From the NCBI RefSeq assembly GCF_020783315.1, contig NZ_CP086063.1, positions 434,001 through 498,000 of the forward strand: DNA of 64,000 nucleotides, written 5' to 3'. A program made the position numbers and the translations under genes. The notes beneath the pieces were generated by a model. That model was not told the DNA's origin and searched no databases. It saw only the letters and a list, made by a program, of their open reading frames with translations. Shown in pieces: positions 4,738-19,650 of this stretch (position 1 is the stretch's first letter; each line of letters opens with the position of its first letter). The DNA comes from Ferruginibacter lapsinanis. GTDB taxonomy: Bacteria; Bacteroidota; Bacteroidia; Chitinophagales; Chitinophagaceae.

Positions 4738-7113
4738 ATGGATAATGCCATTACAAATGATATTGCTTTACAGGAGAAACTGAGTTTTGATAATTTCAGA
4801 ATGGCAGTGCTTCAAGACTATCGTTTTGTATGCAACAGCCGTGAAACTAGTTTATTGGGAAGAAAGGAAGTATTGACAGGCAAGGCTAAATTTGGCATTT
4901 TTGGCGATGGCAAAGAAGTGGCACAGGTAGCTGTTGCTAAATTTTTCAAACCCGGCGATTTCAGATCGGGTTATTACAGAGATCAAACCTTTATGTTTGC
5001 TGCAGGATTAGCCAGCATCGAAGAGTATTTTTCTCAATTATTTGCCGATCCGGTGCATGATGTGTTTAGTGGTGGCAGGCAGATGAACGCTCACTTTGCT
5101 ACCAAAATGGTAGACGAAAACGGAGAATGGCTTGACCTGGCAAACAGAAAGAACACTACCAGTGATATCCCTCCTACTGCTTCGCAAATGCCCAGGGGAT
5201 TTGGTTTGGCTTTCGCTTCTAAAGCTTTCAGAGAAATTCCCGAATTAAAAGATCTTACGCACTTAAGTAACAATGGCAATGAAGTTTGCTTTTGTACAAT
5301 TGGTGATGCATCTACAAGCGAAGGGCATTTTTGGGAAACCATTAATGCAGCCGGCGTGTTACAAGTGCCATTAGCTGTTTTTGTATGGGATGATGGGTAT
5401 GGTATTTCTGTGCCAACAAAATTACAAACTACCAAAGGCTCTATATCTGCAGCCCTATCCGGTTTTCAAAAGAAAGAAGGAACCAACGGTGTGGATATTT
5501 ACAAAATAAAAGGCTGGGATTATGCCGGTATGTGTGAAGTACTGGAAACAGCGATCCAAAAAATAAGAGACACACATACTCCTGCAGTTTTTCATGTTCA
5601 GGAACTGACTCAACCACAGGGACACTCCACTTCAGGTAGTCATGAACGTTATAAAACACCCGAAAGATTAGCATGGGAAAAAGAATGGGATTGTGTAAAA
5701 CAAATGCGCAACTGGATCATTACAAATGAACTGGCAAGTGAAGAAGAATTAACCGACATTGAACTGGAGGCAAAAAATCATGTTAAGGAAAGTAAACAAA
5801 GAGCCTGGGAAAAATATATCAATCCAATAAAAGAAGAACTGGCAATTGCTGTTAATTTGATCAATGCTGTTGCTGATAATAACGAAGAACTGGTAAAACT
5901 AACAGCCGAGCTTTCAGGAAATAGAGAGCCTGTTAGAAAAGATATTTTAAAAGCATTGTCAAACGCATTGGATATTATTCCGAGAGAAGTGAATACGGAT
6001 GCTATTAAAAGTTTTTATGCTGAACTGAAAAATAAATGTTCGAAATTTTATAGTACTCAATTATATAATGAAGGGGCAAAATCTGCGCTTAAAGTAAATA
6101 ATATCAGTCCTTACTACGACGAAGAAAGTCGTATGGTAAATGGATACGAAGTATTGAATAATTATTTTGACCAGCTATTTGCTGCTAATAAAAAAGTGAT
6201 CGCATTTGGTGAAGATGTTGGTAAGATCGGTGATGTGAACCAGGGCTTTAATGGCTTACAAAACAAACATGGCGACAAACGGATCTTTGATACCGGCATC
6301 AGAGAATTGACCATTATGGGACAGGGGATCGGATTGGCTATGCGTGGGCTTCGTCCTATTGCAGAAGTACAATACCTGGATTACTTATTATATGGCTTAC
6401 AACAATTAAGTGACGATGTTAGCACGATACATTACAGAACAGCCGGTTTACAAAGTTGCCCTGTGATCATTCGTACACGTGGGCACAGACTGGAGGGCAT
6501 CTGGCACAGCGGCTCTCCTATGGGTATGATCATACATGCTTTAAGAGGAATGTATGTATGCGTACCACGTAATATGGTGCAGGCTGTTGGAATGTACAAT
6601 ACTTTATTGCAAAGCAATGACCCTGCATTGATGATAGAATGTTTGAATGGCTACAGAATAAAAGAAAAACTACCTGCTAATCTTTTAGCATATACTACGC
6701 CGTTAGGTATACCTGAGATATTAAAAGAAGGAACGGATATTACACTGGTGTCTTACGGAGCCACGCTGCGTATCGTATCTGAAGCAGCGGAATACCTGGA
6801 AAAACTTCAGATCAGTTGCGAAGTGATCGATGTGCAAACCTTATTGCCTTTTGATATCAATCATATCATTGTAGAATCTCTCAAAAAGACCAGCCGTATC
6901 ATTTTCGTTGATGAAGATGTTCCGGGGGGTGCTGCCGGCTATATGTTCAACAAAGTAATGGAAGAACAAAAAGGCTATAAATATCTTGACGTTGCTCCCA
7001 GAACAATTACGTCAAAAGCCCACCGACCAGCCTATGGCAGTGATGGCGATTATTTCAGCAAACCTAATATGGAAGATGTGGTAGCCGCTGTGAAGGAGAT
7101 GATGGCGGAGTGA
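4738..7113 (+). CDS. 2-oxoacid dehydrogenase E1, fused alpha and beta subunits
   Basis: A 791-aa single polypeptide. An E1-alpha half (~residues 15-370) has the TPP-binding segment GDASTSEGHFWETINAAG at ~188. An E1-beta half (~440-791) has GEDVGKIGDV, FDTGIRELTIMGQGIGLAMRGLRPIAEVQYLDY and the C-terminal transketolase domain. It would decarboxylate a 2-oxoacid (branched-chain 2-oxoacid or pyruvate class) with thiamine diphosphate and pass the acyl group to a lipoyl E2. Such alpha-beta fusions are common in Bacteroidota. No E2 or E3 gene is adjacent, so the substrate is not set by context. The stop is followed within 6 bp by a heptad repeat array. Confidence 0.93.
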   Translation: MDNAITNDIALQEKLSFDNFRMAVLQDYRFVCNSRETSLLGRKEVLTGKAKFGIFGDGKEVAQVAVAKFFKPGDFRSGYYRDQTFMFAAGLASIEEYFSQLFADPVHDVFSGGRQMNAHFATKMVDENGEWLDLANRKNTTSDIPPTASQMPRGFGLAFASKAFREIPELKDLTHLSNNGNEVCFCTIGDASTSEGHFWETINAAGVLQVPLAVFVWDDGYGISVPTKLQTTKGSISAALSGFQKKEGTNGVDIYKIKGWDYAGMCEVLETAIQKIRDTHTPAVFHVQELTQPQGHSTSGSHERYKTPERLAWEKEWDCVKQMRNWIITNELASEEELTDIELEAKNHVKESKQRAWEKYINPIKEELAIAVNLINAVADNNEELVKLTAELSGNREPVRKDILKALSNALDIIPREVNTDAIKSFYAELKNKCSKFYSTQLYNEGAKSALKVNNISPYYDEESRMVNGYEVLNNYFDQLFAANKKVIAFGEDVGKIGDVNQGFNGLQNKHGDKRIFDTGIRELTIMGQGIGLAMRGLRPIAEVQYLDYLLYGLQQLSDDVSTIHYRTAGLQSCPVIIRTRGHRLEGIWHSGSPMGMIIHALRGMYVCVPRNMVQAVGMYNTLLQSNDPALMIECLNGYRIKEKLPANLLAYTTPLGIPEILKEGTDITLVSYGATLRIVSEAAEYLEKLQISCEVIDVQTLLPFDINHIIVESLKKTSRIIFVDEDVPGGAAGYMFNKVMEEQKGYKYLDVAPRTITSKAHRPAYGSDGDYFSKPNMEDVVAAVKEMMAE

Positions 7114-7119
7114 TGAAGG

Positions 7120-7271
7120 GCAATGAGCAATAGGCAATAGGCAATGGGCAATAGGCAATGAGCAATGAGCAATGGGCAATGGGCAATGAGCAATGGGCAA
7201 TGAGCAATGAGCAATGGGCAATGAGCAATAGGCAATGGGCAATGAGCAATGGGCAATGGGCAATAAGCAAT
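7120..7271. repeat. Heptad tandem array, GCAATRR type (left array)
   Basis: About 21.7 consecutive 7-bp units of the form GCAATGA, GCAATGG, GCAATAG or GCAATAA, with no spacers. Only positions 6-7 vary. The array starts 6 bp after the E1 stop codon and ends 10 bp before the four-helix-bundle gene. Its reverse complement matches units in the array on the other side of that gene. Every frame is free of stops over most of its length, so long artefactual reading frames appear here. Confidence 0.95.
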
Positions 7272-7281
7272 CCGATATTCG

Positions 7282-7647
7282 ATGGGAGTAATGAATTTTA
7301 AACAAACGAAAGTTTATATACTTGCCTTTGAACAGGCAATGGAGATATTTCATCTTTCTAAAAATTTGCCGAAAGATGAAACCTATTCACTAACCGATCA
7401 AATCAGACGTTCGTCCAGAAGTGTTTGTGCAAATATTGCCGAAGCATACCGAAAGAAAAGATATCCTGCTAATTTTATCTCCAAGGCTACTGATTGTGAT
7501 GCTGAAAATACAGAGACCGGTGTCTGGTTAGATTTCTCTTTAGAATGTAAATACATTGATGCAGAAAAACATTGTTCACTTGTTTCAAGAAATGCAGAAA
7601 TAGGCAGATTATTAAGCCATATGATAAATAACCCCGAAAAATATTAA
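7282..7647 (+). CDS. Four-helix-bundle protein (TIGR02436 / 23S rRNA intervening-sequence protein family)
   Basis: 121 aa. The pattern FKQTKVYILAFEQAMEIFHLSKNLPKDETYSLTDQIRRSSRSVCANIAEAYRKKRYPANFISKATDCDAENTETGVWLDFSLECKY matches the small four-helix-bundle family first noted in intervening sequences of 23S rRNA genes. The invariant-looking core is LTDQIRRSSRSVCANIAE. Family function is not established. Relatives act as accessory nucleic-acid-binding proteins, for example the Avd protein of diversity-generating retroelements. No reverse transcriptase or variable repeat lies nearby. ATGs at 7282 and 7291 are both plausible. The gene sits exactly between two inverted heptad arrays. Confidence 0.9.
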   Translation: MGVMNFKQTKVYILAFEQAMEIFHLSKNLPKDETYSLTDQIRRSSRSVCANIAEAYRKKRYPANFISKATDCDAENTETGVWLDFSLECKYIDAEKHCSLVSRNAEIGRLLSHMINNPEKY

Positions 7648-7663
7648 TTTAGTACCCACAAAT

Positions 7664-7796
7664 TTGCATTTTGCATATTGCATATTGCATATTGCATATT
7701 GCATATTGCATTTTGCATTTTGCATTTTGCATTTTGCATATTGCTCATTGCATATTGCTCATTGCTTATTGCTCATTACTAATTGCCCATTGCTTA
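7664..7796. repeat. Heptad tandem array, TTGCAWW/TTGCYYA type (right array, inverted)
   Basis: Nineteen contiguous 7-bp units: TTGCATT, TTGCATA, then TTGCTCA, TTGCTTA and TTGCCCA toward the right. Read on the minus strand the right-hand units are TGAGCAA, TGGGCAA and TAAGCAA, the same words as the left array, so the two arrays are in inverted orientation around the four-helix-bundle gene. The A of the last unit is the first base of the phzF start codon. Confidence 0.95.
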
Positions 7797-8590
7797 TGAC
7801 GTTATATCAAATCGACGCATTCACCAGTAAATTATTCGGCGGAAACCCCGCTGCTGTTATACCATTAGAAAAATGGCTGGACACCGAATTAATGCAAACA
7901 ATTGCACTGGAAAATAATTTAAGCGAAACCGTATTTATCGTTCCTTCCGCTTCTGCCGATGCAGATTATGAAATAAGATGGTTTACTCCTGAGATAGAGA
8001 TCAATCTGTGTGGCCATGCTACATTGGCAAGTGCCTATGTGCTGTTCAATATTCTTTCTTTTAACAAACCTGAGATACGCTTCAGTTCTAAAAGTGGTAT
8101 ACTAAAAGTTACCAGGCAAAACGACCTGATCATTATGGATTTCCCTAGCTGGAAACCGGAACGTTTTGATGCCTATGATGCAGAACTGTTACCAACTATT
8201 TTAGGTGGTGCAGAAATTATAGGTGTATATAAAAACAGAGATTATTTAGTTGAGCTACAAGATGAAGCTGCTGTAAAAAACTGTATCCCGGATTTTACAT
8301 TGATGAAAAAACATTTTGATAAGATGATCATTACTGCACCGGGTAAGTCAGTAGATTTTGTATCAAGATTTTTTGCGCCGGGTGCAGGCATTGATGAAGA
8401 TCCTGTTACCGGATCAGCTCACTCTCAGTTGATCCCTTTCTGGAGTGAAAAATTACATAAATCAACAATGCATGCCTTGCAATTATCAAAACGTGGCGGT
8501 GAAATATGGTGTGAGCAGGTTTCTCCCGAAAGAGTGACAATGAGCGGCAAGTGTGTGTACTATATGAAAGGTGAGATCAGTTTATCTTAA
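7796..8590 (+). CDS. PhzF family isomerase/epimerase
   Basis: 264 aa from the ATG at 7796. The frame is open upstream to 7664 only because the heptad array has no stops, and that extension (repeats of CILHFAY type) is not protein-like. PhzF hallmarks: YQIDAFTSKLFGGNPAAV, the catalytic Glu44 in NLSETVF, RWFTPEIEINLCGHATLASAYVLF at ~61-84 and DEDPVTGSAHSQLIPFW at ~200. The fold is a diaminopimelate-epimerase-like hotdog pair catalysing proton-transfer isomerisation. No phenazine genes are present and the physiological substrate is unknown. Confidence 0.93.
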   Translation: MTLYQIDAFTSKLFGGNPAAVIPLEKWLDTELMQTIALENNLSETVFIVPSASADADYEIRWFTPEIEINLCGHATLASAYVLFNILSFNKPEIRFSSKSGILKVTRQNDLIIMDFPSWKPERFDAYDAELLPTILGGAEIIGVYKNRDYLVELQDEAAVKNCIPDFTLMKKHFDKMIITAPGKSVDFVSRFFAPGAGIDEDPVTGSAHSQLIPFWSEKLHKSTMHALQLSKRGGEIWCEQVSPERVTMSGKCVYYMKGEISLS

Positions 8591-8607
8591 GTGATCAATA
8601 CTAAAAT

Positions 8608-8644
8608 AAAAAACAGCATCTTCTGATAGAAGATGCTGTTTTTT
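8608..8644. terminator. Bidirectional terminator between phzF-like gene and yebC
   Basis: A perfect 17-bp inverted repeat (AAAAAACAGCATCTTCT, loop GAT, then its complement) between two convergent genes. The A-run and T-run at the ends make it functional on both strands. Confidence 0.92.
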
Positions 8645-8664
8645 TATAAAGACAAAATCCTTGA

Positions 8665-9375
8665 TTATTTCAGATTGTGATACACTTTCTGCACATCTTC
8701 ATCCTGCTCTAATTTATCCACTAATTTCAACACATCATTTGCTGCCTCTTCATCCAGCTCGGTCAAATTCATTGGTATACGGGTAAGTTCAGCCGTGATC
8801 ACTTCTATCTTTTTTTCTTCCAGCGCCTTGGCCATATGCCCGAATTCTGAAAAGGCCGTACGGATAATAATATTCCCTTCGCTATCTTCTCCTATTTCTT
8901 CTAAACCATAATCTATTAGTTCTAATTCAAGATCATCAACATTCAATCCGGTATTCTTTACTTTAAATTCACCCATACGAGTAAAAGTAAAAGCAACACT
9001 ACCACTTGTACCCAATGATCCGCCACTTTTAGTAAAATGCATACGCACATTCGCCACCGTTCTGGTAGGATTATCTGTTGCTGTTTCTACCAATACTGCT
9101 ACACCATGTGGCGCATATCCTTCGTAAACTACTTCATCATAATTGCTGGTATCTTTACCCATCGCTCTCTTAATAGCTGCTTCCACCCTATCTTTTGGCA
9201 TATTACAAGCCTTCGCATTCAGGTAGCATCTACGTAGTGCAGGATTACTATCAGGATCCGGTCCTCCGGCTTTAACAGCAATATTGATCTCTTTACCGAT
9301 ACGGGTAAAGTCTTTCGCCATTTTATCCCAACGTGCAAACATGGCACCTTTTCTTACTTCAAATATTCTTCCCAT
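8665..9375 (-). CDS. YebC/PmpR family protein
   Basis: 236 aa, the usual family length. Starts [30 protein letters not shown], continues with [58 protein letters not shown] and [20 protein letters not shown]. These cover the three YebC domains. Members act as transcriptional regulators or, from more recent work, as factors relieving ribosome stalling. Which applies here cannot be read from the sequence. The gene converges with the phzF-like gene at a shared terminator. Confidence 0.95.
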
Positions 9376-9522
9376 AATTTTAATCGTTAAAAACGTTTAA
9401 GGTTTAATACGTTTTAAGGTTATTTATTCCGTAACCAACTGCCTTCACTCTACTATTTGTGAATCGTTGCCGGGATGCAAATTTAGGGAAAATCATCTTG
9501 CCTGAAAAGAACATATAATCTG

Positions 9523-9734
9523 AGTAGTGGGTCGGTTTTAAAATATATTATAATGTAGAATTACCAATGTTCAGTTTACAGTAGTACAAAAGTTTAATCA
9601 GGGAACCATCCCCAAAACGGGATGTAATCGTTTTGGGGCGGCTTTTTTGGTTACTTTTTTTCCGCAAAAAAAGTAACAGAAGAGCTGTTACCTTAAAACT
9701 GTTTTCATTATAATTTTCAAACTGACCCACTACT
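9523..9734. mobile_element. MITE-like non-autonomous element with 22-bp terminal inverted repeats
   Basis: The ends are inverted repeats beginning AGTAGTGGGTC. Over 22 bp the two ends differ at only two positions (left GTCGGTTTT, right GTCAGTTTG). The 212-bp interior has no convincing gene but contains two hairpins: 9610-9638 (CCCCAAAACG/CGTTTTGGGG) and 9650-9677 (perfect 12-bp stem, loop CCGC). No unambiguous target-site duplication is visible. It lies in the 410-bp gap between yebC and the ABC ATPase. It could be a MITE or an internally deleted insertion sequence. Confidence 0.7.
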
Positions 9735-9785
9735 TATATGAAAAACTTCCTACTCTTTATCAGATGATTAGTAATTTTAAGCAGT

Positions 9786-11468
9786 ATGACCGAACCTGTT
9801 TTACAAGTAGAGAATATATCTATCAGCTTTTCTGCTGATGGCAATACCACCAATGCCGTAAAAGATATTTCGTTTTTGGTAGAACCGGCACAAACAGTTG
9901 CCATCGTTGGAGAATCGGGTTCGGGAAAATCGGTGACTGCTTTATCAATAATGCAATTGTTGCCCAAACAAAGCACTCTATCCGGCAACATCTTATTTGC
10001 CGGTAAAAATTTAGCTCAGTTATCTCCCAAAGAAATCAACACGATCAGAGGTAAAGATATCGGTATGATCTTTCAGGAACCGATGACCTCCTTAAACCCC
10101 GTATTTACCTGCGGCTACCAGGTGATGGAAGCCATTCAATTACACCAGCAGCTATCTGCCAAAGAAGCAAAAAAGAAAACCATTGAATTGTTTGAAAAAG
10201 TAAAGTTACCTGATCCTGCTGCTATCATTGACCGATACCCTCATCAACTGAGTGGCGGACAAAAGCAACGGGTAATGATAGCGATGGCAATCAGTTGCAA
10301 TCCTTCGTTGCTGATAGCTGATGAGCCTACCACTGCTTTGGATGTAACCGTACAAAAAACAATTCTTGACTTAATAAAAGAATTACAGCAACAAAATGGC
10401 ATGTCTGTTATTATCATCACACATGATCTCGGACTGGTTGCCGATGTTGCAGACAAGATCATTGTCATGCATAAAGGACAGATCGTTGAACAGGCAAATG
10501 CAAAAAATATCCTGACCGATCCACAACATCCTTACACAAAAGCCTTACTGGCATGCAGGCCCGGATTGCATCCTAAAGGAGAACGGCTGCCTTTGATCAG
10601 TGATTTCCTTGAAACTGATCCTTCTTCTCTTAAACAACAAAAAGAACACGCCGCCATCAATACAACCTCCAATGAAATAGTGTTGAAAGTGGAACATGTA
10701 AAAGTGTATTATCCGGGTAAGAGAACATTGTTTGGAAAAACGCCTGAACCTTTTAAGGCTGTAGATGATGTATCGTTTACCGTTAGTAAAGGTGAGATCG
10801 TGGGCCTGGTTGGTGAAAGCGGTTGCGGCAAGACCACATTAGGCAGGGCCATTTTACACCTGCAGCAGGTTACTTCCGGGAGTATACTACTACAGGAGAA
10901 AAATTTATCTCATTTACCCAAAACAGCATTAAGAAATTTACGCAAAGACGTGCAGATAGTTTTTCAGGACCCATATGGTTCTTTAAACCCACGGCTTACC
11001 ATTGGTGAAGCGATACTTGAACCGATGACAGTTCACTCACTTTTAGCCAACAACAAACAGCGAAAAGAAAAAGTGATCGAATTACTGGAAAAGGTAGATC
11101 TGGATGCCGGTTTCTATGATCGCTATCCCCATCAGTTCAGCGGCGGGCAAAGACAGCGTATCTGTATTGCTAGGGCATTGGCACTTAACCCCTCTTTTTT
11201 AGTGTTTGATGAAAGCGTGAGTGCGCTGGATGTAAGCGTACAGGCACAGGTACTCAATCTGATCAACGACCTGAAACAGGAATTCCAATTTACGGGGATC
11301 TTTATATCGCATGATCTTGCAGTGGTACGCTATATCAGCAACCGCATACTGGTAATGAACCGGGGTAAGATCATAGAAGAAGGAGATGCAGACCAGGTGT
11401 ACTTTTCCCCAAAAATGGACTACACAAAAAAATTGATCGATTCTATCCTGGGGAAGAACATTGTCTGA
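9786..11468 (+). CDS. Dipeptide/oligopeptide-type ABC transporter ATPase, two NBDs fused
   Basis: 560 aa with two complete ABC nucleotide-binding domains. NBD1 has Walker A GESGSGKS (residues 42-49) and signature LSGGQKQR followed by Walker B LLIADEPTTALD. NBD2 (~residue 295 on) has Walker A GESGCGKTT, signature FSGGQRQR and LVFDESVSALD. An oligopeptide-family C-terminal segment follows NBD1 (DPQHPYTKALLACRPG). This is the DppD-DppF/GsiA arrangement, energising peptide import with separate permeases. None are adjacent here. The ATG at 9786 lies 51 bp after the MITE-like element. Confidence 0.94.
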   Translation: MTEPVLQVENISISFSADGNTTNAVKDISFLVEPAQTVAIVGESGSGKSVTALSIMQLLPKQSTLSGNILFAGKNLAQLSPKEINTIRGKDIGMIFQEPMTSLNPVFTCGYQVMEAIQLHQQLSAKEAKKKTIELFEKVKLPDPAAIIDRYPHQLSGGQKQRVMIAMAISCNPSLLIADEPTTALDVTVQKTILDLIKELQQQNGMSVIIITHDLGLVADVADKIIVMHKGQIVEQANAKNILTDPQHPYTKALLACRPGLHPKGERLPLISDFLETDPSSLKQQKEHAAINTTSNEIVLKVEHVKVYYPGKRTLFGKTPEPFKAVDDVSFTVSKGEIVGLVGESGCGKTTLGRAILHLQQVTSGSILLQEKNLSHLPKTALRNLRKDVQIVFQDPYGSLNPRLTIGEAILEPMTVHSLLANNKQRKEKVIELLEKVDLDAGFYDRYPHQFSGGQRQRICIARALALNPSFLVFDESVSALDVSVQAQVLNLINDLKQEFQFTGIFISHDLAVVRYISNRILVMNRGKIIEEGDADQVYFSPKMDYTKKLIDSILGKNIV

Positions 11469-11717
11469 ATCAGAATTTCCGGCATTTGAAGATGTGCAGG
11501 ATCAGACAATAAATATTGAGAAGTGTTTCGAAATGGCAGAAGCTGATCCCGAAAATCGATCAATCCTGAAAATCCTTATTCAGACAAGTGAAAAAGTACT
11601 ACCTTTGCAGTCTTAAAATCATGCCGTAACATGATAAGCGCCTTTTAAACAGGCTACTATCTCTGTAAACTCTACAGTACAAGGTCTGATTATCATTAAA
11701 AAAATTTATTGATACAC

Positions 11718-12767
11718 ATGAAATTATCACAGTTTAGATTCGACCTCCCACTTAATCTGATTGCCCAAAACCCCACCAAAAGAAGAGAAGACAGCCGAAT
11801 GATGGTGGTGAACCGTAAAACCGGCAACATCGAAAACCGCAATTTCAGAGACATCATCGAGTATTTTGATGATAAAGATGTGATGGTAGTTAACAACACT
11901 AAAGTTTTTCCTGCCCGTATGTACGGACGTAAAGAAAAGACCGGTGCTAAAATTGAAGTTTTTTTATTAAGAGAATTAAACAAGCCAAACCGTTTATGGG
12001 ATGTGATCGTTGATCCTGCCCGTAAGATCCGTGTGGGCAACAAATTATATTTTGGAGAAAATGATGAACTGGTTGCTGAAGTAATTGACAACACCACCAG
12101 CCGTGGCCGTACTATCCGTTTCTTATGGGAAGATACGGAAGAGTCTTTCAGAAAGATGCTTGATTTTATGGGAGAAACCCCACTGCCAAAATACATCAAA
12201 CGCAAACCGGACGAAGAAGATAAAGAACGTTACCAAACCGTTTATGCAAAGCATGAAGGCGCTGTTGCAGCACCTACTGCAGGCTTACACTTTAGCAAGG
12301 AGTTGATCAAACGCCTTGAAATTAAAGGTATCCGTTTTGCAGAAGTTACTTTACATACAGGGCTTGGCACTTTCAGACCTATTGAAGTGGAAGACCTGAG
12401 CAAACATAAAATGGATGCTGAATATTACGGCATTGATGAAACTGCCTGCAAAATTGTAAATAAAGCTAAAGAAGATGGAAGAAGGATCTGCTCTGTTGGT
12501 ACTACCACTATGAGAGCGATGGAATCATCTTTCACTGCACAAAAATTATTGAAACCTTCTGAAGGATGGACCAATATGTTCATTCATCCTCCATATAATT
12601 TTTCAATTGCAGATTCATTGGTTACCAATTTCCATTTACCAAAAACAAGTCTATTAATTATGACCTGTGCTTTTGCAGGATACGACCTGGTAATGGAAGC
12701 TTACAAAAAAGCCATTAAAGATAAATACCGTTTCTTCAGTTATGGAGATGCGTTATTGATCATCTAA
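11718..12767 (+). CDS. queA: tRNA preQ1(34) S-adenosylmethionine ribosyltransferase-isomerase QueA
   Basis: Transfers and isomerises the ribosyl part of SAM onto preQ1 at tRNA position 34, making epoxyqueuosine. 349 aa from the ATG at 11718. An in-frame TTG at 11709 would add three residues but is the weaker start. Family motifs: [87 protein letters not shown] and [19 protein letters not shown]. No other queuosine gene is in the window. The 249 bp upstream hold no gene I accept. Confidence 0.97.
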
Positions 12768-13094: not shown

Positions 13095-13220
13095 TAGAAT
13101 GTATTTTCTATTTGAATATACAATTTTTATTGCCCCGTACCCCACGGTTGGTATCCGCTCTAACGGAGTATAAAAAAAAGACAAGCCCTGACCGAATAAT
13201 TTTTTTAGTAGCCGGTCGGT

Positions 13221-13440
13221 GAAGGCTTCGGTATGATACCGAAAGCCTGCCGGAAGTCTGGGGAAGGCTTCGGTATCATACCGAAAGCTTGCCGGAAGTC
13301 TGGGGAAGGCTTCGGTATGATACCGAAAGCTTGCCGGAAGTCCGGGGAAGGTTTCGGGAACACCCGACGGGCTGCCGGAAGCCTGGGGAAGCTTTCGGGA
13401 TTACCCGACGGGCTGCCGGAGGTCTGGGGAAGCTTTCGGG
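13221..13440. repeat. Minisatellite: five 41-42-bp tandem units with palindromic core
   Basis: Unit starts fall at 13221, 13263, 13305, 13347 and 13388, with a partial sixth at 13429. The first three units are 42 bp and the last two 41 bp. Each begins GAAGGYTTCGG or GAAGCTTTCGG and ends GCCGGAAGYCTGGG or a close variant. The first three contain the palindrome TTCGGTATGATACCGAA or its variant. The GC content is far above the surroundings. Both strands lack stops here, so spurious overlapping reading frames with 14-residue periodicity arise. I do not call a gene. Confidence 0.92.
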
Positions 13441-13660
13441 CAAATAAAATGGCAGTGTAGTGGGAAAATAACATCTTAAACAACAGCTTTTTACCTAGCT
13501 GGTGGAAAATTGAAGTTTTTGAGTGATTTTAAGGAAAGGAAAATTGTATTGGCGCAATAACAATACAAAAACTATACTACTAAACCGTTGGTTTTCAATG
13601 GTGACTTTTTTTACGGATAGCGTGTGATATCAAATATATTTGTGTTAGCAGCAACATAAA

Positions 13661-14224
13661 ATGACAGTTCCTAAATATTTAATTCTTTTATTGACAGTTT
13701 TATTTTCTTCGTGTGGCAACAATTCGACACACACCAGCGAGGCAAACACTCTTGACACAAGTAAGTCGGTTGACACAGGAAAACAAATTGCCAATTCGAA
13801 ACCAGTAGACACAGCTCTTCTTAAAATTTGGTCTGCATTTCAACAGGCAGTTTCGACAAATAATATTTCGCAATTCAGACAACTTTCACTTGACAGTTTA
13901 TACTCTTGCGACACAACTTTGAGCACAACTAAATTTATTAAAAACTGCTACAAAGAAATTTTTGACACTTTACTTTTGAGAAAGATTACAATCCCGACAG
14001 AAATTAATCAGCTTGACAAAGAAATGGAACTTGGATACTTTACTAAATCTGTACCTAATAAAGCTGACTTTACTGGTGACGCTATTACGTTGAAACAATT
14101 TCAAGTAGTTAAAGAATTTACACCTGACGGAGCTTGGACAATGACATTTGATTTTATCAAGACGAAAGAAGGTTATAGATTTTTTGGTTGTGACTCTTAC
14201 GGTGGACCAATATGCTGCCGCTAA
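13661..14224 (+). CDS. Cassette 1: hypothetical lipoprotein, 187 aa
   Basis: MTVPKYLILLLTVLFSSC is a type II signal peptide with a lipobox Cys near residue 18, so a lipoprotein is expected. The mature part begins with a Ser/Thr/Asp-rich linker. It ends with FIKTKEGYRFFGCDSYGGPICCR, resembling the end of a small NTF2-like or DUF-type fold, but I do not recognise the family. The gene starts 17 bp after the cassette edge GTTAGCAGC. Its stop codon TAA lies inside the 3' signature GCCGCTAAC. This gene-to-site packing is cassette-like. Confidence 0.8.
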   Translation: MTVPKYLILLLTVLFSSCGNNSTHTSEANTLDTSKSVDTGKQIANSKPVDTALLKIWSAFQQAVSTNNISQFRQLSLDSLYSCDTTLSTTKFIKNCYKEIFDTLLLRKITIPTEINQLDKEMELGYFTKSVPNKADFTGDAITLKQFQVVKEFTPDGAWTMTFDFIKTKEGYRFFGCDSYGGPICCR

Positions 14225-14415
14225 CATTGGGTTTCGTGCAAGTTGGGCATGACCAGCAAACATCAACTAATTGCAAATCCAAGTTGTGGTTCGGGCTGGA
14301 CAAACAGCTTTCAACTTTAGTTCTTAAATTCGACTTTATATTTTCAATCAGCAGCGGTTTTAGGCGGACGGAATACTAATTCCCAACCTGCATAAAGCCC
14401 TGCCCGTTGTACGCC
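14214..14415. repeat. attC-like site 1
   Basis: Left edge GCCGCTAAC then ATTGGG and TTTCGTGCAAGTTGGG. Right arm CCCAACCTGCATAAAG, CCCTGCCC and GTTGTACGCC. Left and right arms pair as an imperfect ~30-bp stem around a ~130-nt interior. The left AAC edge pairs with the 5' edge of the lipoprotein cassette at 13644 (10 of 12 positions). The right GTT edge begins the next cassette. Confidence 0.75.
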
Positions 14416-14423
14416 ACTTTAAT

Positions 14424-15128
14424 ATGACCCGTCTACTAATCATACTATTTTTTTTGACTGCATTGTTTGACACTTCCTTTGGACAAAAACCGAAGGCGAA
14501 AAAACCAAATGTATCTGCAACTACCAAAACTGTTGACACCACACAAAACCCAATCAAAGACACTGCATTTTTAAACCATTTTGTAAGATTTTATGCAGAC
14601 AGTATTTTGACAATTGTTGACAGTTTATCGAATGACACAAATTTTTTAAAATCAATTGGTGACACTTCTATATTTGGGTACGGGAAATTTGCAAAGCCTG
14701 AACATAAAATTCGTTTTCCTGCAAGACCTTTAGGGTGGACAAGTGATTTTGAGCAAATTTTTACAAGTGACCAAATCTTTGAGTTGGACTCAATAATTAG
14801 CGGGTTTGAAAAGGAAACAAAAAACGAAATCGCAATTGTAACAATTGACAGTTCGAGTACAACAAAAGAAGAGTTTGACAACTTAATATTGACAATTTCA
14901 AATAATTGGGGCGTTGGTAAAAAAAGTTTGAATAATGGAATTACAATTGGCATAAGCACAGGACTTAGAAAAATTAGAATTTGCAACGGCTATGGAATTG
15001 AAGTAAAGTTGACAGACGCGGAAACAAAAAAAATAATTGACGACATTATACTTCCCGAATTTAAGAAAGGGAATTATTTTGTAGGGACAAAAAACGGACT
15101 ATTGACTTTAATGCAAAAAGTCCGTTAA
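14424..15128 (+). CDS. Cassette 2: TPM-domain protein, exported
   Basis: 234 aa with a signal peptide ending TSFGQ. Residues ~110-234 (GWTSDFEQIFTSDQIFELDSIISGFEKETKNEIAIVTIDS, NNWGVGKKSLNNGITIGIS, KIRICNGYGIEVKLTDAETKKIIDDIILPEFKKGNY) match the TPM domain (PF04536), known from YgcG/Psb32-type proteins. The usual C-terminal membrane helix is absent, so it is probably periplasmic or surface soluble. Starts 18 bp after the cassette edge and stops 6 bp before the next site. Function unknown. Confidence 0.85.
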   Translation: MTRLLIILFFLTALFDTSFGQKPKAKKPNVSATTKTVDTTQNPIKDTAFLNHFVRFYADSILTIVDSLSNDTNFLKSIGDTSIFGYGKFAKPEHKIRFPARPLGWTSDFEQIFTSDQIFELDSIISGFEKETKNEIAIVTIDSSSTTKEEFDNLILTISNNWGVGKKSLNNGITIGISTGLRKIRICNGYGIEVKLTDAETKKIIDDIILPEFKKGNYFVGTKNGLLTLMQKVR

Positions 15129-15134
15129 CAAAGC

Positions 15135-15334
15135 GGCGTACAACATTGGGTTTTGTGCAAGTTGGGTTCGACCAGCAAACATCAGCCAGTTGCAAATCCA
15201 AGCTGTAGTTTGGGCTGGACAATCAACTTTCAACTTTAGTTCTTAAATTCAACATTATATTTTCAATCAGCAGCGGTTGTGGGCAGACGGAATTCTAATT
15301 CCCAACCTGCATAAAGCCCTGCTCGTTATGGGCA
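15135..15334. repeat. attC-like site 2
   Basis: Left edge GGCGTACAAC is the exact reverse complement of GTTGTACGCC at 14406-14415, the 5' edge of the same cassette. The left arm continues ATTGGG and TTTTGTGCAAGTTGGG. The right arm is CCCAACCTGCATAAAG, CCCTGCTC and GTTATGGGC. Most of the interior is close in sequence to site 1, including TTTAGTTCTTAAATTC and TATTTTCAATCAGCAGCGG. Confidence 0.78.
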
Positions 15335-15348
15335 ATTATTATTGAGCT

Positions 15349-16176
15349 ATGCCATCCAAAATAACAAATAGACATGGAAAGGAATTCCTTAAATCCACCA
15401 GAATAAATCTTGCGGAGCGGGTTGCATACATGTGTAGTAATCCCTATTGTAGGAAATTAACTATTAAGCCCAGTTCTGACAAAAATATTGCAATCAAATC
15501 GGGAAAAGCTTCACACATTATTTCTGCTTCGCCAAACGGACCTCGTGCAGACGATACAAAATCCCCTCACTTTATTCGGTCTTTTGACAATGGCATTTGG
15601 TTATGTGACAAGTGTGCAAGAGAAGTAGACGACAATCAAAGTATTTATAAAAAGGAAGAATTAATTAAATGGAAATTCGATGCAGAGACTTATGTTGAAA
15701 GTTTGGTAACACAAGACACTCGACTTAGACAGTTAAGGCTTTTAATTCAAAATTATTTAAGCGCCTTACGTATATTGTCTGCGCTACCATCTAAACTTGA
15801 TCAAACTTTTGAAAACCCTAATGGTAACAATATTAATCTTACAAGACTTTTTATGGAACTTGAACTAGTGTTGTTCGATAACAAATTTTTGGAAGAAGCA
15901 AATCGTATTAATTCAATCATCAAAGATCTCGATAAAAATGTATGCCCTTTTGTACATTCAAACAAATCAGAATACTCTGTCAACATTTCGAACTGGAAAA
16001 ACCTTGCAGTAAAAATTTTAATGGTTGACATAATGCGATTTACAGCAGAATCTTATTCAAGATATTTGCAGCAAGAAACTGAAATGGTTAATGATGTGTT
16101 GGACAGTTTGAAAGCAAAAAGCATTGTACCTACTGAATTACCTTTAAAAGAAACTTATATAGCAACATATATATAA
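15349..16176 (+). CDS. Cassette 3: HNH-like nuclease-domain protein
   Basis: 275 aa. Residues ~22-115 fit a zinc-containing HNH/His-Me finger domain: RVAYMCSNPYCRKLTI (CxxxxC knuckle), GKASHIISASPNGPRADD with the candidate catalytic His in SHI, then DNGIWLCDKCAREVDDN, where the CDKC replaces the usual CxxH pair. This AHI-GPR-NGIWLC arrangement is common in proteins of bacterial defence loci. The C-terminal ~150 residues are helical and unrecognised. Cytoplasmic, no signal peptide. It stops 2 bp before its attC-like site. A role as nuclease or defence effector is inference. Confidence 0.8.
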   Translation: MPSKITNRHGKEFLKSTRINLAERVAYMCSNPYCRKLTIKPSSDKNIAIKSGKASHIISASPNGPRADDTKSPHFIRSFDNGIWLCDKCAREVDDNQSIYKKEELIKWKFDAETYVESLVTQDTRLRQLRLLIQNYLSALRILSALPSKLDQTFENPNGNNINLTRLFMELELVLFDNKFLEEANRINSIIKDLDKNVCPFVHSNKSEYSVNISNWKNLAVKILMVDIMRFTAESYSRYLQQETEMVNDVLDSLKAKSIVPTELPLKETYIATYI

Positions 16177-16178
16177 CT

Positions 16179-16380
16179 GCCCATAACAAACGGTTTTGTG
16201 CAATTGGGGCTTGACGGAAGTTCAATCGGCTGCAATACAGATCCAGTCTGCATATCCGGCAGACGGAATGCTGTTGATTAGTAGTTTTTAATTTCAATAT
16301 TTTGTTAGTAATTTAGCTTCAGTACTGGGCGGACAGTTGGTCAATTCCCCAACTGCACAAAGCCTCGGTCGTTGTGTGCT
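16179..16380. repeat. attC-like site 3
   Basis: Left edge GCCCATAAC is the exact reverse complement of GTTATGGGC at 15325-15333. The left arm TTTTGTGCAATTGGGG pairs with the right arm CCCCAACTGCACAAAG. The right edge is GTTGTGTGCT. The arm sequence differs from sites 1, 2 and 5, but differences on one side are matched on the other (GTTGGG/CCCAAC becomes TTGGGG/CCCCAA). The interior is largely unrelated to sites 1 and 2. Confidence 0.75.
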
Positions 16381-16404
16381 ATGCTCTGACAAACCTCAAA
16401 CCTT

Positions 16405-16908
16405 ATGGCAATTTTTGAAAATAATCCTGACCAATGGCAAAGACTTGACTGGCTAATTTTACAAAATGGCTGGACAAGTTTATACTGGCACCAGAGTGTT
16501 TTAAACAATGACATTGACTGGTTTAAAAACGAAAAGTATAACATCATTGATTTTGACTGCCAAAATTGGACAGACACAGATCAAATACATAAAGACATTA
16601 AAAAGGAACTTGTTTTTCCAGACTATTACGGCGAAAATTTCAATGTCTTAAATGATTGCCTATCCAACCTCGAAATTACCGACACAGGACTTGTAATTGT
16701 GTTTCGGCATTTTCAAATTGTTAACACGGATATTGCTCATGGATTGCTTGACATTTTTGCTCGTAATTCAAGGCTACATAATTTGTTTGGTCAACGCCTT
16801 TTGACACTTGTGCAAGTTGACAACCCAAATTATCAAATTGATCCAGTAGGTTCAAGTCCGGTTTTATGGAATGGTGCAGAATGGTTAGACTCAAAAAGAG
16901 GTTTATAA
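16405..16908 (+). CDS. Cassette 4: barstar-family (ribonuclease inhibitor) protein
   Basis: 167 aa. The central segment IIDFDCQNWTDTDQIHKDIKKELVFPDYYGENFNVLNDCLSNLEI carries the barstar hallmark (phi-D-x2, then FPxYYGxNxxxLxDCL). Barstar binds and inactivates barnase-type RNases in the cytoplasm. It is longer than classical barstar (~90 aa), with an N-terminal extension and a C-terminal tail. No RNase toxin gene is adjacent, so it is an orphan immunity gene. The ATG at 16405 is 34 bp after the cassette edge, the second longest leader in the array. Confidence 0.88.
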   Translation: MAIFENNPDQWQRLDWLILQNGWTSLYWHQSVLNNDIDWFKNEKYNIIDFDCQNWTDTDQIHKDIKKELVFPDYYGENFNVLNDCLSNLEITDTGLVIVFRHFQIVNTDIAHGLLDIFARNSRLHNLFGQRLLTLVQVDNPNYQIDPVGSSPVLWNGAEWLDSKRGL

Positions 16909-16929
16909 TAAGAATCCGTTTGACAGATT

Positions 16930-17137
16930 AGCACGGCACACAACATTGGTATTGCCAATAGTGGGGCTTGACATTGGAGCAATCAGCAGCGGTAATTCTG
17001 TTGTACTGTAGTTCGGGGCTCGACGAATAAAGCCCAGCTTTAGTTCTTAATATTTAACTTTATCAAAAGCCAGGCAGTAGTTCCGGCGGACGGATTTCTA
17101 ATTCCCCACCATCGGCAATACCTGCCCGTTGGTAGCA
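16930..17137. repeat. attC-like site 4
   Basis: Left edge GGCACACAAC matches the reverse complement of GTTGTGTGCT at 16371-16380 in 9 of 10 bases. The left arm ATTGGTATTGCC and AATAGTGGGGCTTGAC pairs with the right arm CCCCACCATCGGCAATACC. The right edge is GTTGGTAGCA. The arms are almost unrelated to the other sites in sequence yet keep pairing, which is covariation. The interior retains CTTTAGTTCTTAA and GGCGGACGGATTTCTAATTCC. Confidence 0.75.
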
Positions 17138-17153
17138 ACTTTACAGACACACT

Positions 17154-17795
17154 ATGACTGCACAAGAGCGTAAGGAAAAAACAGAAGCTTATTTAAAAGA
17201 ACTTGATATTCCATTCAACTTTGGGCTTCCGCCAATTGAAGAAGAAAGTGAAGCTATTATTCGGACTGCTGCAGATATTGCAAAAAGAGTTTTTATTTTA
17301 GTTTACTTAGGTGTCTATGCCGAAGATGGTGATAAAGAAGAAATAATAGAATTTTTCAAATCAGAAGGACTTTGGGATTCAGTTTCTGAATACGAAAAAA
17401 AACTACTGTCGAAAAAGAAATTAACAGAGAAAGATAAAATCGATATTTCGTGGCAGTCAGAGGGAATTTATCTAATGCTTTGGGCTATAAATAAAATAGA
17501 TCATTTAGGTTTACCAATTGACCAATGTAATATTGGCGAAATGCTTGACTTATTGCCAAATGCTTTTGACTCGACTAAAGACTTTATACAAAATGCTACG
17601 GTTAGACCAACCGCAGAAATATTAGACAAATCTGACTTGATTTATAGGCTACATTGGGCCGCAAGAGAGGCTGATTCAAAAGATGAAGATATTCCAGGAA
17701 ACATTGATATTGGAATTATACAAAAGTGGCATTATGCAATAAACTGGATTACATACTATGACGAAAATTGGGACGACATTCTAACCGACACTTAA
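17154..17795 (+). CDS. Cassette 5: DUF4272 domain protein
   Basis: 213 aa, cytoplasmic. TAQERKEKTEAYLKELDIPFNFGLPPIEEESEAIIRTAADIAKRVFILVYLGVYAEDGD followed by ISWQSEGIYLMLWAINKIDHLGLP, then ATVRPTAEILDKSDLIYRLHWAAREAD is the typical DUF4272 order. Family function is unknown, though it recurs in polymorphic-toxin and accessory neighbourhoods. It starts 26 bp after GTTGGTAGCA and stops 6 bp before TGCTACCAAC, which fits the single-gene cassette pattern. Confidence 0.88.
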   Translation: MTAQERKEKTEAYLKELDIPFNFGLPPIEEESEAIIRTAADIAKRVFILVYLGVYAEDGDKEEIIEFFKSEGLWDSVSEYEKKLLSKKKLTEKDKIDISWQSEGIYLMLWAINKIDHLGLPIDQCNIGEMLDLLPNAFDSTKDFIQNATVRPTAEILDKSDLIYRLHWAAREADSKDEDIPGNIDIGIIQKWHYAINWITYYDENWDDILTDT

Positions 17796-17801
17796 AAAAA
17801 G

Positions 17802-18004
17802 TGCTACCAACATTGGGGTTTTATGCAAGTTGGGCTTGACCTTGTGACATCAGCTAATTGCAAATCCCAGCTTCAGTCCTAGCAGACGAATATCTATCAA
17901 CTTTTGTACATAACTTCATCAACATATTTTCAATTGGTAGCGGTTGTGGGCAGACGTAATACTAATTCCCAACCTGCATAAAGCCCTGCCCGTTGACCAC
18001 TCAC
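17802..18004. repeat. attC-like site 5
   Basis: Left edge TGCTACCAAC is the exact reverse complement of GTTGGTAGCA at 17128-17137. The left arm GGGGTTTTATGCAAGTTGGG pairs with the right arm CCCAACCTGCATAAAG. The right edge is GTTGACCACTCAC. The reverse complement of this last signature is not found downstream of the following amidohydrolase gene, so the next unit lacks an intact 3' site. Confidence 0.75.
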
Positions 18005-18035
18005 TAACTCAACTTTATCAACTAAAACTGCGATA

Positions 18036-19475
18036 ATGAAAAAATCTTTGCTTGCATTAGTACTCCTTCCATTCTTCGCCACGAATGTTTTTTCTCAATT
18101 AAAATTCAGCGACGAAACAAAAAAATATATTGAGTATAGCGACTCCGTTATCGCATTCAAAAATGCTTTATTGATTGATGGAACTGGCAATGCTGCCAAA
18201 TCACATCAAACAGTTATCATTGTTAATGGTAAGATCAATTGGATAGGCGATGATGTCAATGCCATTATTCCAAAAGTTGCAAATACAATTGACCTGAATG
18301 GAAAAGCCTTAATGCCCGGCTTAGTTATGCTGCATGAACACATGTATATATCAGCCCCTTCCATGGAAACCAGGCAATATTTTGTACATCAATTGCCGGC
18401 AACTTTTCCACGCCTCTATTTGGCAGCAGGCGCAACCACCATACGCACGGCCGGAAATATTGAACCCTACTCTGATATAAATCTTAAGAAAGATATTGAT
18501 GCAGGTAAAATACCCGGGCCATCAATAGAAGCAACTGCTCCTTATATGGAAGGAAACCAATCACCCATACAGCAGATGAACAGATTGGATAAGCCGGCAG
18601 ATGCTGTATCGTTTGTAAACTATTGGGCTGACCAGGGCTTTACTTCTTTCAAGGGGTATATGTTTATTGACAAACCTACTTTAAGGGCTGCCATTGAAGC
18701 AGCACACAAAAGAAAGCTAAAGGTTACTGCTCATTTGTGTGCAGTCACTTATCGGGAAGCTGCCGAAATGGGTATTGACCAATTAGAACACGGTTTTTTT
18801 GCCAGTACGGATTTTGTAACAGACAAAAAAGAGAATCAATGTCCTGCTAATGCAGATGAGGTAATTGCGAATCTCAATGTTGAGAGCGACAGCGTAAAAA
18901 ATCTGCTGCAGTTATTAGTCGATAAAAAAGTTATTATAACATCTACCCTGGCTGTGTTTGAAGGATTTACTACCACACAACCTGCGCCAACAGCAGAACT
19001 ATTAAATTATTTTTCACCAGATAGCAGAGATTTCTATTTAAAATTATTTGCACGGATAAAATCCGGCAAAGCACCCAGTGACGATGACAGAGCGTTTGTA
19101 AATAATGCAAAAATGGAAAAACTATTTTACACTATGGGAGGCTTACTTACCGTAGGCACAGACCCAACAGGAAACGGCGGCACTATTGCAGGGTTTGGTA
19201 ATTGGCGAGCCATAGAATTACTGGTAGAGTCAGATGGTTTTACTCCACTGGAAGCCATAAAAATAGCAACACTAAACGGGGCAATTGCATTAGGCTTCAA
19301 CAAAAATATAGGCACGATTGAAACAGGTAAAAACGCTGACCTGTTAATTATTGACGGAGACCCATCAAAAAACATCAGTGACATTCGTAAAGTGCAGTTT
19401 GTTTTTAAAAAAGGAGTGGGTTACAACTCAAGAAAATTGTTTGAATCTGTAAAGGGGAAAGTGGGTTTTAATTGA
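18036..19475 (+). CDS. Secreted amidohydrolase family protein
   Basis: 479 aa with a signal peptide ending ATNVFSQ. Amidohydrolase-fold metal ligands can be assigned: HEH in VMLHEHMYIS at ~100, the candidate carboxylated Lys in SFKGYM, His in VTAHLCAV, His in QLEHGFF and Asp in GTDPTGNGG. The C-terminal ATLNGAIALGFNKNIGTIETGKNADLLIIDGDP returns to the small beta domain. Related proteins include imidazolonepropionase-like and prolidase-like enzymes. The substrate is unknown. It follows attC-like site 5 by 31 bp but is larger and more housekeeping-like than the cassette genes, so it may be native sequence at the array edge. Confidence 0.88.
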   Translation: MKKSLLALVLLPFFATNVFSQLKFSDETKKYIEYSDSVIAFKNALLIDGTGNAAKSHQTVIIVNGKINWIGDDVNAIIPKVANTIDLNGKALMPGLVMLHEHMYISAPSMETRQYFVHQLPATFPRLYLAAGATTIRTAGNIEPYSDINLKKDIDAGKIPGPSIEATAPYMEGNQSPIQQMNRLDKPADAVSFVNYWADQGFTSFKGYMFIDKPTLRAAIEAAHKRKLKVTAHLCAVTYREAAEMGIDQLEHGFFASTDFVTDKKENQCPANADEVIANLNVESDSVKNLLQLLVDKKVIITSTLAVFEGFTTTQPAPTAELLNYFSPDSRDFYLKLFARIKSGKAPSDDDRAFVNNAKMEKLFYTMGGLLTVGTDPTGNGGTIAGFGNWRAIELLVESDGFTPLEAIKIATLNGAIALGFNKNIGTIETGKNADLLIIDGDPSKNISDIRKVQFVFKKGVGYNSRKLFESVKGKVGFN

Positions 19476-19498
19476 TGTAATGCACTGCTGAATCGTAT

Positions 19499-19534
19499 TG
19501 CTCCTTGGTCGGTGTCTCCGCCGACCAAGGAGCA
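19499..19534. terminator. Strong hairpin after amidohydrolase gene
   Basis: TGCTCCTTGGTCGG and CCGACCAAGGAGCA form a perfect 14-bp stem around an 8-nt loop. It lies 23 bp after the amidohydrolase stop and is followed by a T-rich stretch a few bases on, so it may terminate transcription. It occupies the place where the left arm of the sixth attC-like site would be expected. Confidence 0.6.
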
Positions 19535-19570
19535 TAATTCCATTTGTTTTTTTGTTATTATCTTCATCTT

Positions 19571-19650
19571 CATATTTTCACCGCAGCAATGGTTCCGGGC
19601 TGAACACTAAATAAATACCAGCACAGCAGCAAGTTCTGTCCGTTGGGAAA
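19571..19650. repeat. Degenerate right half of an attC-like site (site 6)
   Basis: TATTTTCACCGCAGCAATGG, then CAGCAAGTTCTGTCC and GTTGGGAAAT resemble the right half of sites 1, 2 and 5 (TATTTTCAATCAGCAGCGG, then CCCTGCCC and GTTG). No left arm is recognisable. It ends 19 bp before the DUF389 gene, which therefore sits like a cassette gene. I infer decay or partial replacement. The call is tentative. Confidence 0.4.

What the first reader, a model, noticed from the sequence alone, without database searches (positions are those of the whole stretch)
13644..18004. Integron-like gene-cassette array built on unusual long attC-like sites
Seen in sequence: five intact ~200-bp imperfect palindromes separate single plus-strand genes. 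Each of the first five units carries a private signature: its first 9-10 bases (GTT...) are the reverse complement of the last bases before its own palindrome (...AAC). Three pairs are exact (GTTGTACGCC/GGCGTACAAC, GTTATGGGC/GCCCATAAC, GTTGGTAGCA/TGCTACCAAC) and two have one or two mismatches. That is how a cassette's edge re-forms R'/R'' in its circular form in integrons. Known: canonical attC sites are shorter (about 57-141 bp) with RYYYAAC/GTTRRRY cores. Inference: these sites are a divergent attC class, or belong to another folded-single-strand recombinase system. This is my strongest candidate for an undescribed system.
Basis: partly seen in the sequence, partly recalled or inferred. Interest (0 to 1): 0.93.

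Follow-up and report, generated by a model that had tools for sequence, protein, structure and literature searches.

The report
Integron-like cassette system of Bacteroidota
In a Bacteroidota genome, five neighbouring single genes each carry matching end tags and are separated by hairpin-like repeats, and related genomes have the same kind of gene chain right behind one recombinase gene, so this is likely a gene-capture system that works like an integron but uses a different recombinase.

Summary
Window 13644-18004 carries five units with five full-length ~200-bp imperfect palindromes. Each unit's first 10 bases match the reverse complement of its own last 10 (48 of 50 bases; best of 120 pairings). 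In 76 cassettes from same-genus genomes the tags match 6.30 of 7 variable bases, against 3.46 for mismatched partners (0 of 10,000 permutations). The hairpin arms covary strongly over 87 sites.

The missing recombinase is in relatives: a ~400-aa tyrosine recombinase upstream, on the same strand. In 13 of 13 loci with a readable first site, the first cassette's tag matches its own end at 9-10 of 10 bases; in 12 it begins 113-388 bp after the recombinase stop. The leader left of the window array matches two other array leaders in this genome, and all diverge at GTT; it is likely an attI whose recombinase was lost (a truncated remnant sits elsewhere). Flavobacterium enshiense, Algibacter, Seonamhaeicola, Rufibacter and a Chryseobacterium plasmid show the same layout.

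The recombinase lacks the ~40-residue IntI insertion, falls outside the IntI clade and below the IntI cut-off; the core is GTTRNNNG, not GTTRRRY. Verdict: a new variant of the integron principle, not IntI-type. Folded single-strand recombination is inferred, not shown.

The parts
13218..13444 (+). tandem ~42-nt repeats just left of the leader; the same kind of repeat stands left of two other leaders in this genome
13453..13643 (+). attI-like leader: 95% and 92% identical to leaders of two other arrays in the genome; the copies diverge at, or within 3 bases after, the GTT of the first cassette
   Evidence: resembles (by eye) the stretch between recombinase stop and first cassette in L105
13635..13642 (+). 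TATATTTG, fits the Bacteroidota -7 promoter pattern TAnnTTTG (pattern recalled), ending 1 nt before the first GTT; would serve as a cassette promoter (inferred)
   Evidence: sequence; a TATA-like stretch is the consensus of the last bases of 33 leaders
13645..14406 (+). cassette 1 (G|TT to G|TT), ORF 13661-14224, 187 aa, no Pfam family
14216..14415 (+). attC-like site 1 (R'' to R')
14407..15325 (+). cassette 2, ORF 14424-15128, TPM domain protein
15135..15334 (+). attC-like site 2
15326..16371 (+). cassette 3, ORF 15349-16176, 275 aa, no Pfam family
16178..16380 (+). attC-like site 3
16372..17128 (+). cassette 4, ORF 16405-16908, Barstar domain
16935..17137 (+). attC-like site 4
17129..17992 (+). 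cassette 5, ORF 17154-17795, DUF4272
17802..18001 (+). attC-like site 5
17993..19642 (+). sixth unit, decayed: amidohydrolase gene 18036-19475; the left part of its site, with the right tag, is missing
19541..19644 (+). right half of a sixth attC-like site (model positions 93-193)

Best explanation
The window holds a leader followed by five single-gene cassettes with attC-like sites, and this array likely arose by an integron-type reaction of a Bacteroidota tyrosine recombinase that is not IntI. Shown: the private tag pairs, the covarying hairpin arms, the recombinase-leader-cassette order in relatives, and divergence at GTT between related platforms. Inferred: one strand of the site folds into a hairpin; the recombinase recognises its paired arms, the unpaired spacer and the conserved A.C mismatches; it exchanges strands at G|TT in R'; the excised cassette circle rejoins its own R' and R''; and insertion takes place at the double-stranded leader (attI), where a promoter would read the newest cassette. 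In this genome the array is an orphan: leaders remain at several places, but only a truncated remnant of the recombinase was found.
For: Private tags: 48 of 50 in the window; 76 cassettes at 6.30/7 versus 3.46/7, 0 of 10,000 permutations. Arms: 87 sites, 89.6% of cells paired versus 66.9% shuffled, 326 double-changed cells versus 106, covariation score 0.529 versus 0.135 shuffled and at most 0.076 when slid. Conserved asymmetry: A opposite C inside the L stem in 85 of 87 sites; left-tag position 11 is A in 76 of 76, opposite C in 55 of 76. Recombinase linkage: of 23 recombinase loci, 15 had a downstream site match and 13 a readable first site; in 13 of 13 the first cassette's left tag matches its own right tag at 9 or 10 of 10 (no shuffle control there). 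With control: exact first-cassette tags with A.C at position 11 in 8 of 26 testable phylum-wide loci (shuffles 0.0), 14 of 64 named loci (0.2), 7 of 19 genus loci (0.0), 0 of 15 canonical IntI loci. Breakpoint: two species share 1,532 bp of recombinase plus leader at 95.3% identity, and the match ends at the GTT of different first cassettes. Named arrays. Own-genome remnant. Fold: Foldseek's top PDB match is the integron integrase 2a3v.
Confidence: 0.88

Rival explanations
1. A canonical integron (IntI) array, or a CALIN, with unusually long attC sites.
For: Same logic of tags, arms and array; C-terminal SPLxxL aligned with IntI4; Foldseek top hit IntI4. Canonical IntI occurs elsewhere in the phylum draw (105 of 395 genomes over the cut-off). 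The IntI insertion is said to be not fully conserved in the integron-like subgroup (PMC8138268, passage).
Against: 0 of 93 genus genomes exceed the IntI model cut-off. The array recombinases lack about 40 residues that IntI has between the KxxKDR and HxxRH motifs: 58-62 in 18 of 18 versus 100 in the 3 of 19 IntI rows that the motif search could measure, and 13 profile positions versus 56 residues in 2a3v. Outside the IntI clade. Only 11 of 76 left tags fit GTTRRRY.
Confidence: 0.07
2. Immobile intergenic hairpins (terminators, REP-like repeats) that happen to stand between genes.
For: They sit between co-oriented genes after stop codons; the window array itself has no intact recombinase nearby.
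Against: Private tags match across a gene and not across the hairpin (6.30/7 versus 3.73/7 within a site); linked recombinase and leader; platforms that diverge at GTT.
Confidence: 0.02
3. A cassette system related to the rAID immunity-gene clusters of Bacteroidales rather than to integrons; the recombinase moves double-stranded units.
For: A cluster that looks like rAID (L259, label mine) has a homologous recombinase upstream of co-oriented immunity-type genes and repeated short intergenic motifs; some window cargo (Barstar) is immunity-like (likeness recalled).
Against: No exact private tags were found in L259, and its motifs are about 46 nt with another core. It may be a cousin, not an alternative mechanism.
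Confidence: 0.03

Closest known systems
Integrons (IntI, attI, attC; e.g. Vibrio cholerae superintegron)
   Same: Single-gene co-oriented cassettes; site of R''-spacer-L''...L'-spacer-R' design; own R'/R'' pairing that can extend to 9-11 nt (PMC2727003, passages read); primary site next to a tyrosine recombinase; strand-asymmetric stem.
   Different: Recombinase lacks the IntI insertion and lies outside the IntI clade; core GTTRNNNG; conserved A.C mismatches where attC has bulged extrahelical bases; recombinase transcribed toward the array with the leader after its stop codon.
Treponema integrons with intI transcribed toward the cassettes (PMC3607928, passages read)
   Same: Integrase on the same strand as the cassettes.
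   Different: Treponema uses IntI; here a non-IntI recombinase.
rAID clusters of gut Bacteroidales (PMC12247911, passages read)
   Same: Tyrosine recombinase upstream of co-oriented short genes with conserved intergenic motifs.
   Different: Described as immunity-gene arrays; no attI/attC anatomy in the passages read; no exact private tags in the one rAID-like cluster examined (L259).
Xer/XerA recombinases (4a8e, 5hxy)
   Same: Close sequence and fold match; no IntI insertion.
   Different: Act on a double-stranded dif-type site; not linked to cassette arrays (both recalled).

Membership tests
Integron (IntI-type) | Integrase over the TIGR02249 (integrase_gron) cut-off | tested here: not met
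   0 of 93 genus genomes; three array recombinases scanned whole (L058, L062, L096) score 162, 184 and 181 bits against a 265-bit cut-off
Integron (IntI-type) | IntI-specific insertion in the catalytic domain | tested here: not met
   58-62 aa between motifs in 18 of 18 array recombinases versus 100 in the 3 of 19 IntI rows measurable; 13 positions versus 56 residues against 2a3v; no helix between residues 263 and 280 of the model
Integron (IntI-type) | Integrase falls in the IntI clade | tested here: not met
   105-row quick tree; IntI plus array recombinases as one exclusive clade rejected, p-AU 4e-8; some rows labelled 'other' may also be array-linked
Integron (IntI-type) | attC core GTTRRRY / RYYYAAC | tested here: not met
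   11 of 76 left tags fit; GTTRNNNG in 73 of 76
Integron (IntI-type) | Imperfect-palindrome sites whose R' and R'' come from the same cassette and are complementary | tested here: met
Integron (IntI-type) | attI next to the integrase, first cassette starts there | tested here: met
   in relatives; in the window only the leader remains
Integron (IntI-type) | Extrahelical bases that set strand choice | tested here: inconclusive
   a conserved A.C mismatch in 85 of 87 sites in place of a bulge; its effect on strand choice is untested
Integron (IntI-type) | Recombination of one folded strand | not testable with these tools
   needs a bench assay
rAID cluster | Recombinase upstream of co-oriented immunity genes with conserved intergenic motifs | tested here: inconclusive
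   architecture alike; the rAID-like L259 has no exact private tags

The most novel reading that the evidence does not exclude
The integron was invented more than once: a XerA-like recombinase lineage in Bacteroidota built its own attI, folded attC-like sites with A.C mismatch polarity and long cassette arrays, independently of IntI, and it is a major unrecognised route of gene exchange in that phylum.
Probability: 0.45. Interest if true: 0.96.

Novelty: new variant of a known kind. Interest (0 to 1): 0.88.

Why it matters
Integrons are counted as rare in Bacteroidetes: IntegronFinder 2.0 reports In0 elements from the earlier study and one complete integron, in Salinibacter ruber (PMC9024848, passages read). 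Here a family search finds matching recombinases in 114 of 395 genomes drawn across the phylum (not all are shown to have arrays), and one contig of a same-genus genome gave 31 distinct cassettes. If the mechanism holds, a large pool of mobile single genes has been missed by IntI-based tools, and the IntI-specific insertion, described as essential for integron function though not fully conserved (PMC8138268, passages read), would not be needed for cassette capture from hairpins. That is directly testable.

Tried and rejected
Whole-site DNA folding gave no signal. The Rfam search of the window gave only two tRNAs. No IntI over the cut-off in the host genome. Near-identical cassettes in two contexts were sought and not found among the fetched array loci; only sites, platforms and a short repeated stretch in L062 recur. 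A rAID-like cluster was tested for the same tags without success. The chain detectors miss L127, whose array was read by eye and then by script. The first chain element listed for Seonamhaeicola (L145) has a 6/10 tag and is not counted. No covariance model was built and IntegronFinder was not available. Rows dropped: only cassettes with both a GTT and an AAC located were counted; 88 site references were listed and 87 aligned, one about 30 nt longer left out. In one search, loci with under 700 bp after the recombinase stop, or without a recombinase frame, were left out (80 to 64, 30 to 26, 30 to 19, 20 to 15). In the tree, two very long rows were removed before the AU test. Literature: ten searches; in their listings and the passages read I saw no description of this system; preprints and subscription papers are mostly not in that library.
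Full report
What is in the window. Between 13644 and 17992, five plus-strand genes (no Pfam family, TPM domain, no Pfam family, Barstar, DUF4272) stand in units of 757-1046 bp, each ending in a site of about 200 bp. Each unit begins GTT plus seven private bases whose reverse complement ends the same unit's gene part just before its site. The five own pairs score 9, 10, 10, 9 and 10 of 10, the unique best of all 120 pairings (48; next 44). A sixth unit with an amidohydrolase gene ends in the right half of a site at 19541-19644.

The leader. Left of the first GTT lies a ~190-bp stretch that recurs twice in the 3.455-Mb genome at 95% and 92% identity, with weaker copies elsewhere. Each of the two strong copies stands before another array: one with a site 88% identical to window site 2 (L015), one with two cassettes read by eye (L055). 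Two weaker copies (L065, L066) also end in GTT followed by a fitting tag, and two full sites follow the L065 copy. The three strong copies stop matching at GTT, or three bases later where two first tags happen to share them. This is what an attI would look like with different first cassettes in it.

Statistics on many sites. A profile built from six sites and iterated found 140 full-length matches in the fetched loci, some counted twice because loci overlap. Among 76 cassettes (74 distinct) with both edges located, the seven variable tag positions match 6.30 on average, against 3.46 for tags of different cassettes and 3.73 for the two tags in one site; none of 10,000 permutations came near (479 observed, 310 best). 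So the tags belong to the cassette, not to the site. Position 11 of the left tag is A in 76 of 76, and the opposite base is C in 55 of 76. In the stem between the two arms, 87 aligned sites pair in 89.6% of cells, with 326 double changes against 106 in shuffles, while slid partners pair in at most 55% and covary little. One position inside the stem is an A opposite C in 85 of 87. Conserved unpaired positions in an otherwise covarying stem are the kind of mark that gives a folded strand its polarity in attC sites (PMC2727003, passages read); here they are 1x1 mismatches and not bulges. Energy folding of one whole site as DNA gave no excess stability, which counts against a stable fold of the full 200 nt on its own.

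The recombinase. Searching 93 genus genomes with the integron-integrase model gave no hit over its cut-off, but in a number of them sub-threshold tyrosine recombinases lay on the same contig a few kb from site matches. Of 23 recombinase loci examined, 15 had a site match downstream on the same strand and 13 a readable first site; 8 had none, several of them at contig ends. In all 13 the first cassette's left tag was found by its match (9 or 10 of 10) to its own right tag, 113-388 bp after the recombinase stop in 12 of them; in L119 the distance is 1,786 bp from the first recombinase, and a second recombinase gene ends about 115 bp before it. Two species whose recombinases are 97% identical (L058, L108) share 1,532 bp at 95.3% identity through recombinase and leader, and the match ends at the GTT of different first cassettes. 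In a wider test that demands an exact 10/10 first-cassette tag and the A.C mismatch, 8 of 26 loci drawn across the phylum pass (0.0 expected from shuffles), 14 of 64 named loci (0.2), 7 of 19 genus loci (0.0) and 0 of 15 canonical IntI loci. One recombinase near sites (L063) points the other way.

Named cases. Flavobacterium enshiense DK69 has the recombinase, a leader and eleven cassettes with tags matching 9 or 10 of 10; AAC-to-GTT distances are 120-156 bp. Algibacter onchidii, Seonamhaeicola aphaedonensis, Rufibacter sp. SYSU D00344 (57-bp sites), a Sphingobacteriales MAG and Bacteroidetes GWF2_41_31 have chains of the same kind; shuffled loci gave at most two linked sites. A Chryseobacterium plasmid has, behind a recombinase annotated 'site-specific tyrosine recombinase/integron integrase', an exact pair with the A.C mark; the scan there listed four exact pairs in all and had no shuffle control. 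The family search found matches in 114 of 395 genomes across the phylum; not all of these are shown to have arrays.

State of the window's own array. The genome has only a truncated piece of the recombinase (123 query residues aligned, 52% identical), plus XerC- and XerD-like genes and two other integrase-like frames. The window array is thus an orphan and may now be silent or served in trans. Across 88 genus genomes, sites and recombinase co-occur more than expected (27 both, 10 recombinase only, 18 sites only, 33 neither; p 5.8e-4), with many exceptions that fit loss or the limited reach of a one-site BLAST search.

That the host is a Bacteroidota is inferred from type IX secretion signal domains in its proteins and from the named relatives of the recombinase.

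Noticed in passing
L257 (plasmid pHH1107, FJ012881.1) 5049-7120: A shorter recombinase of the same family (48% identity over 169-406 of the L105 protein) stands directly before tet(X3), and a stretch like a left site arm follows the gene; the two tags do not match each other exactly. The same level of recombinase match is listed on some two dozen Acinetobacter plasmids among the 40 rows shown, but the neighbourhood was checked in this one record only. Described only.
   Followed up: partly
window 13218-13444; L015 9960-10210; L055: Tandem ~42-nt repeats left of three leaders in this genome; role unknown.
   Followed up: no
leaders in L141, L145, L155, L170, L203, L278: Several attI-like leaders hold an inverted repeat of roughly 17-24 bp ending about 5-12 bp before GTT (read by eye), a possible double-stranded recombinase binding site.
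   Followed up: no
L259 (Parabacteroides distasonis plasmid) 7268-12355: rAID-like immunity cluster with repeated ~46-nt motifs between genes behind a homologous recombinase; may be a cousin system with another core.
   Followed up: partly
phylum draw: Canonical IntI over the model cut-off in 105 of 395 genomes drawn across the phylum, more than the literature count for Bacteroidetes suggests; of the listed genomes with a match only one (G052, same order) lies inside the window's class.
   Followed up: no
L157 (Spirochaetota MAG): Recombinase with an exact first-cassette tag pair and the A.C mark in a record named as outside Bacteroidota; a mis-binned contig is possible.
   Followed up: no
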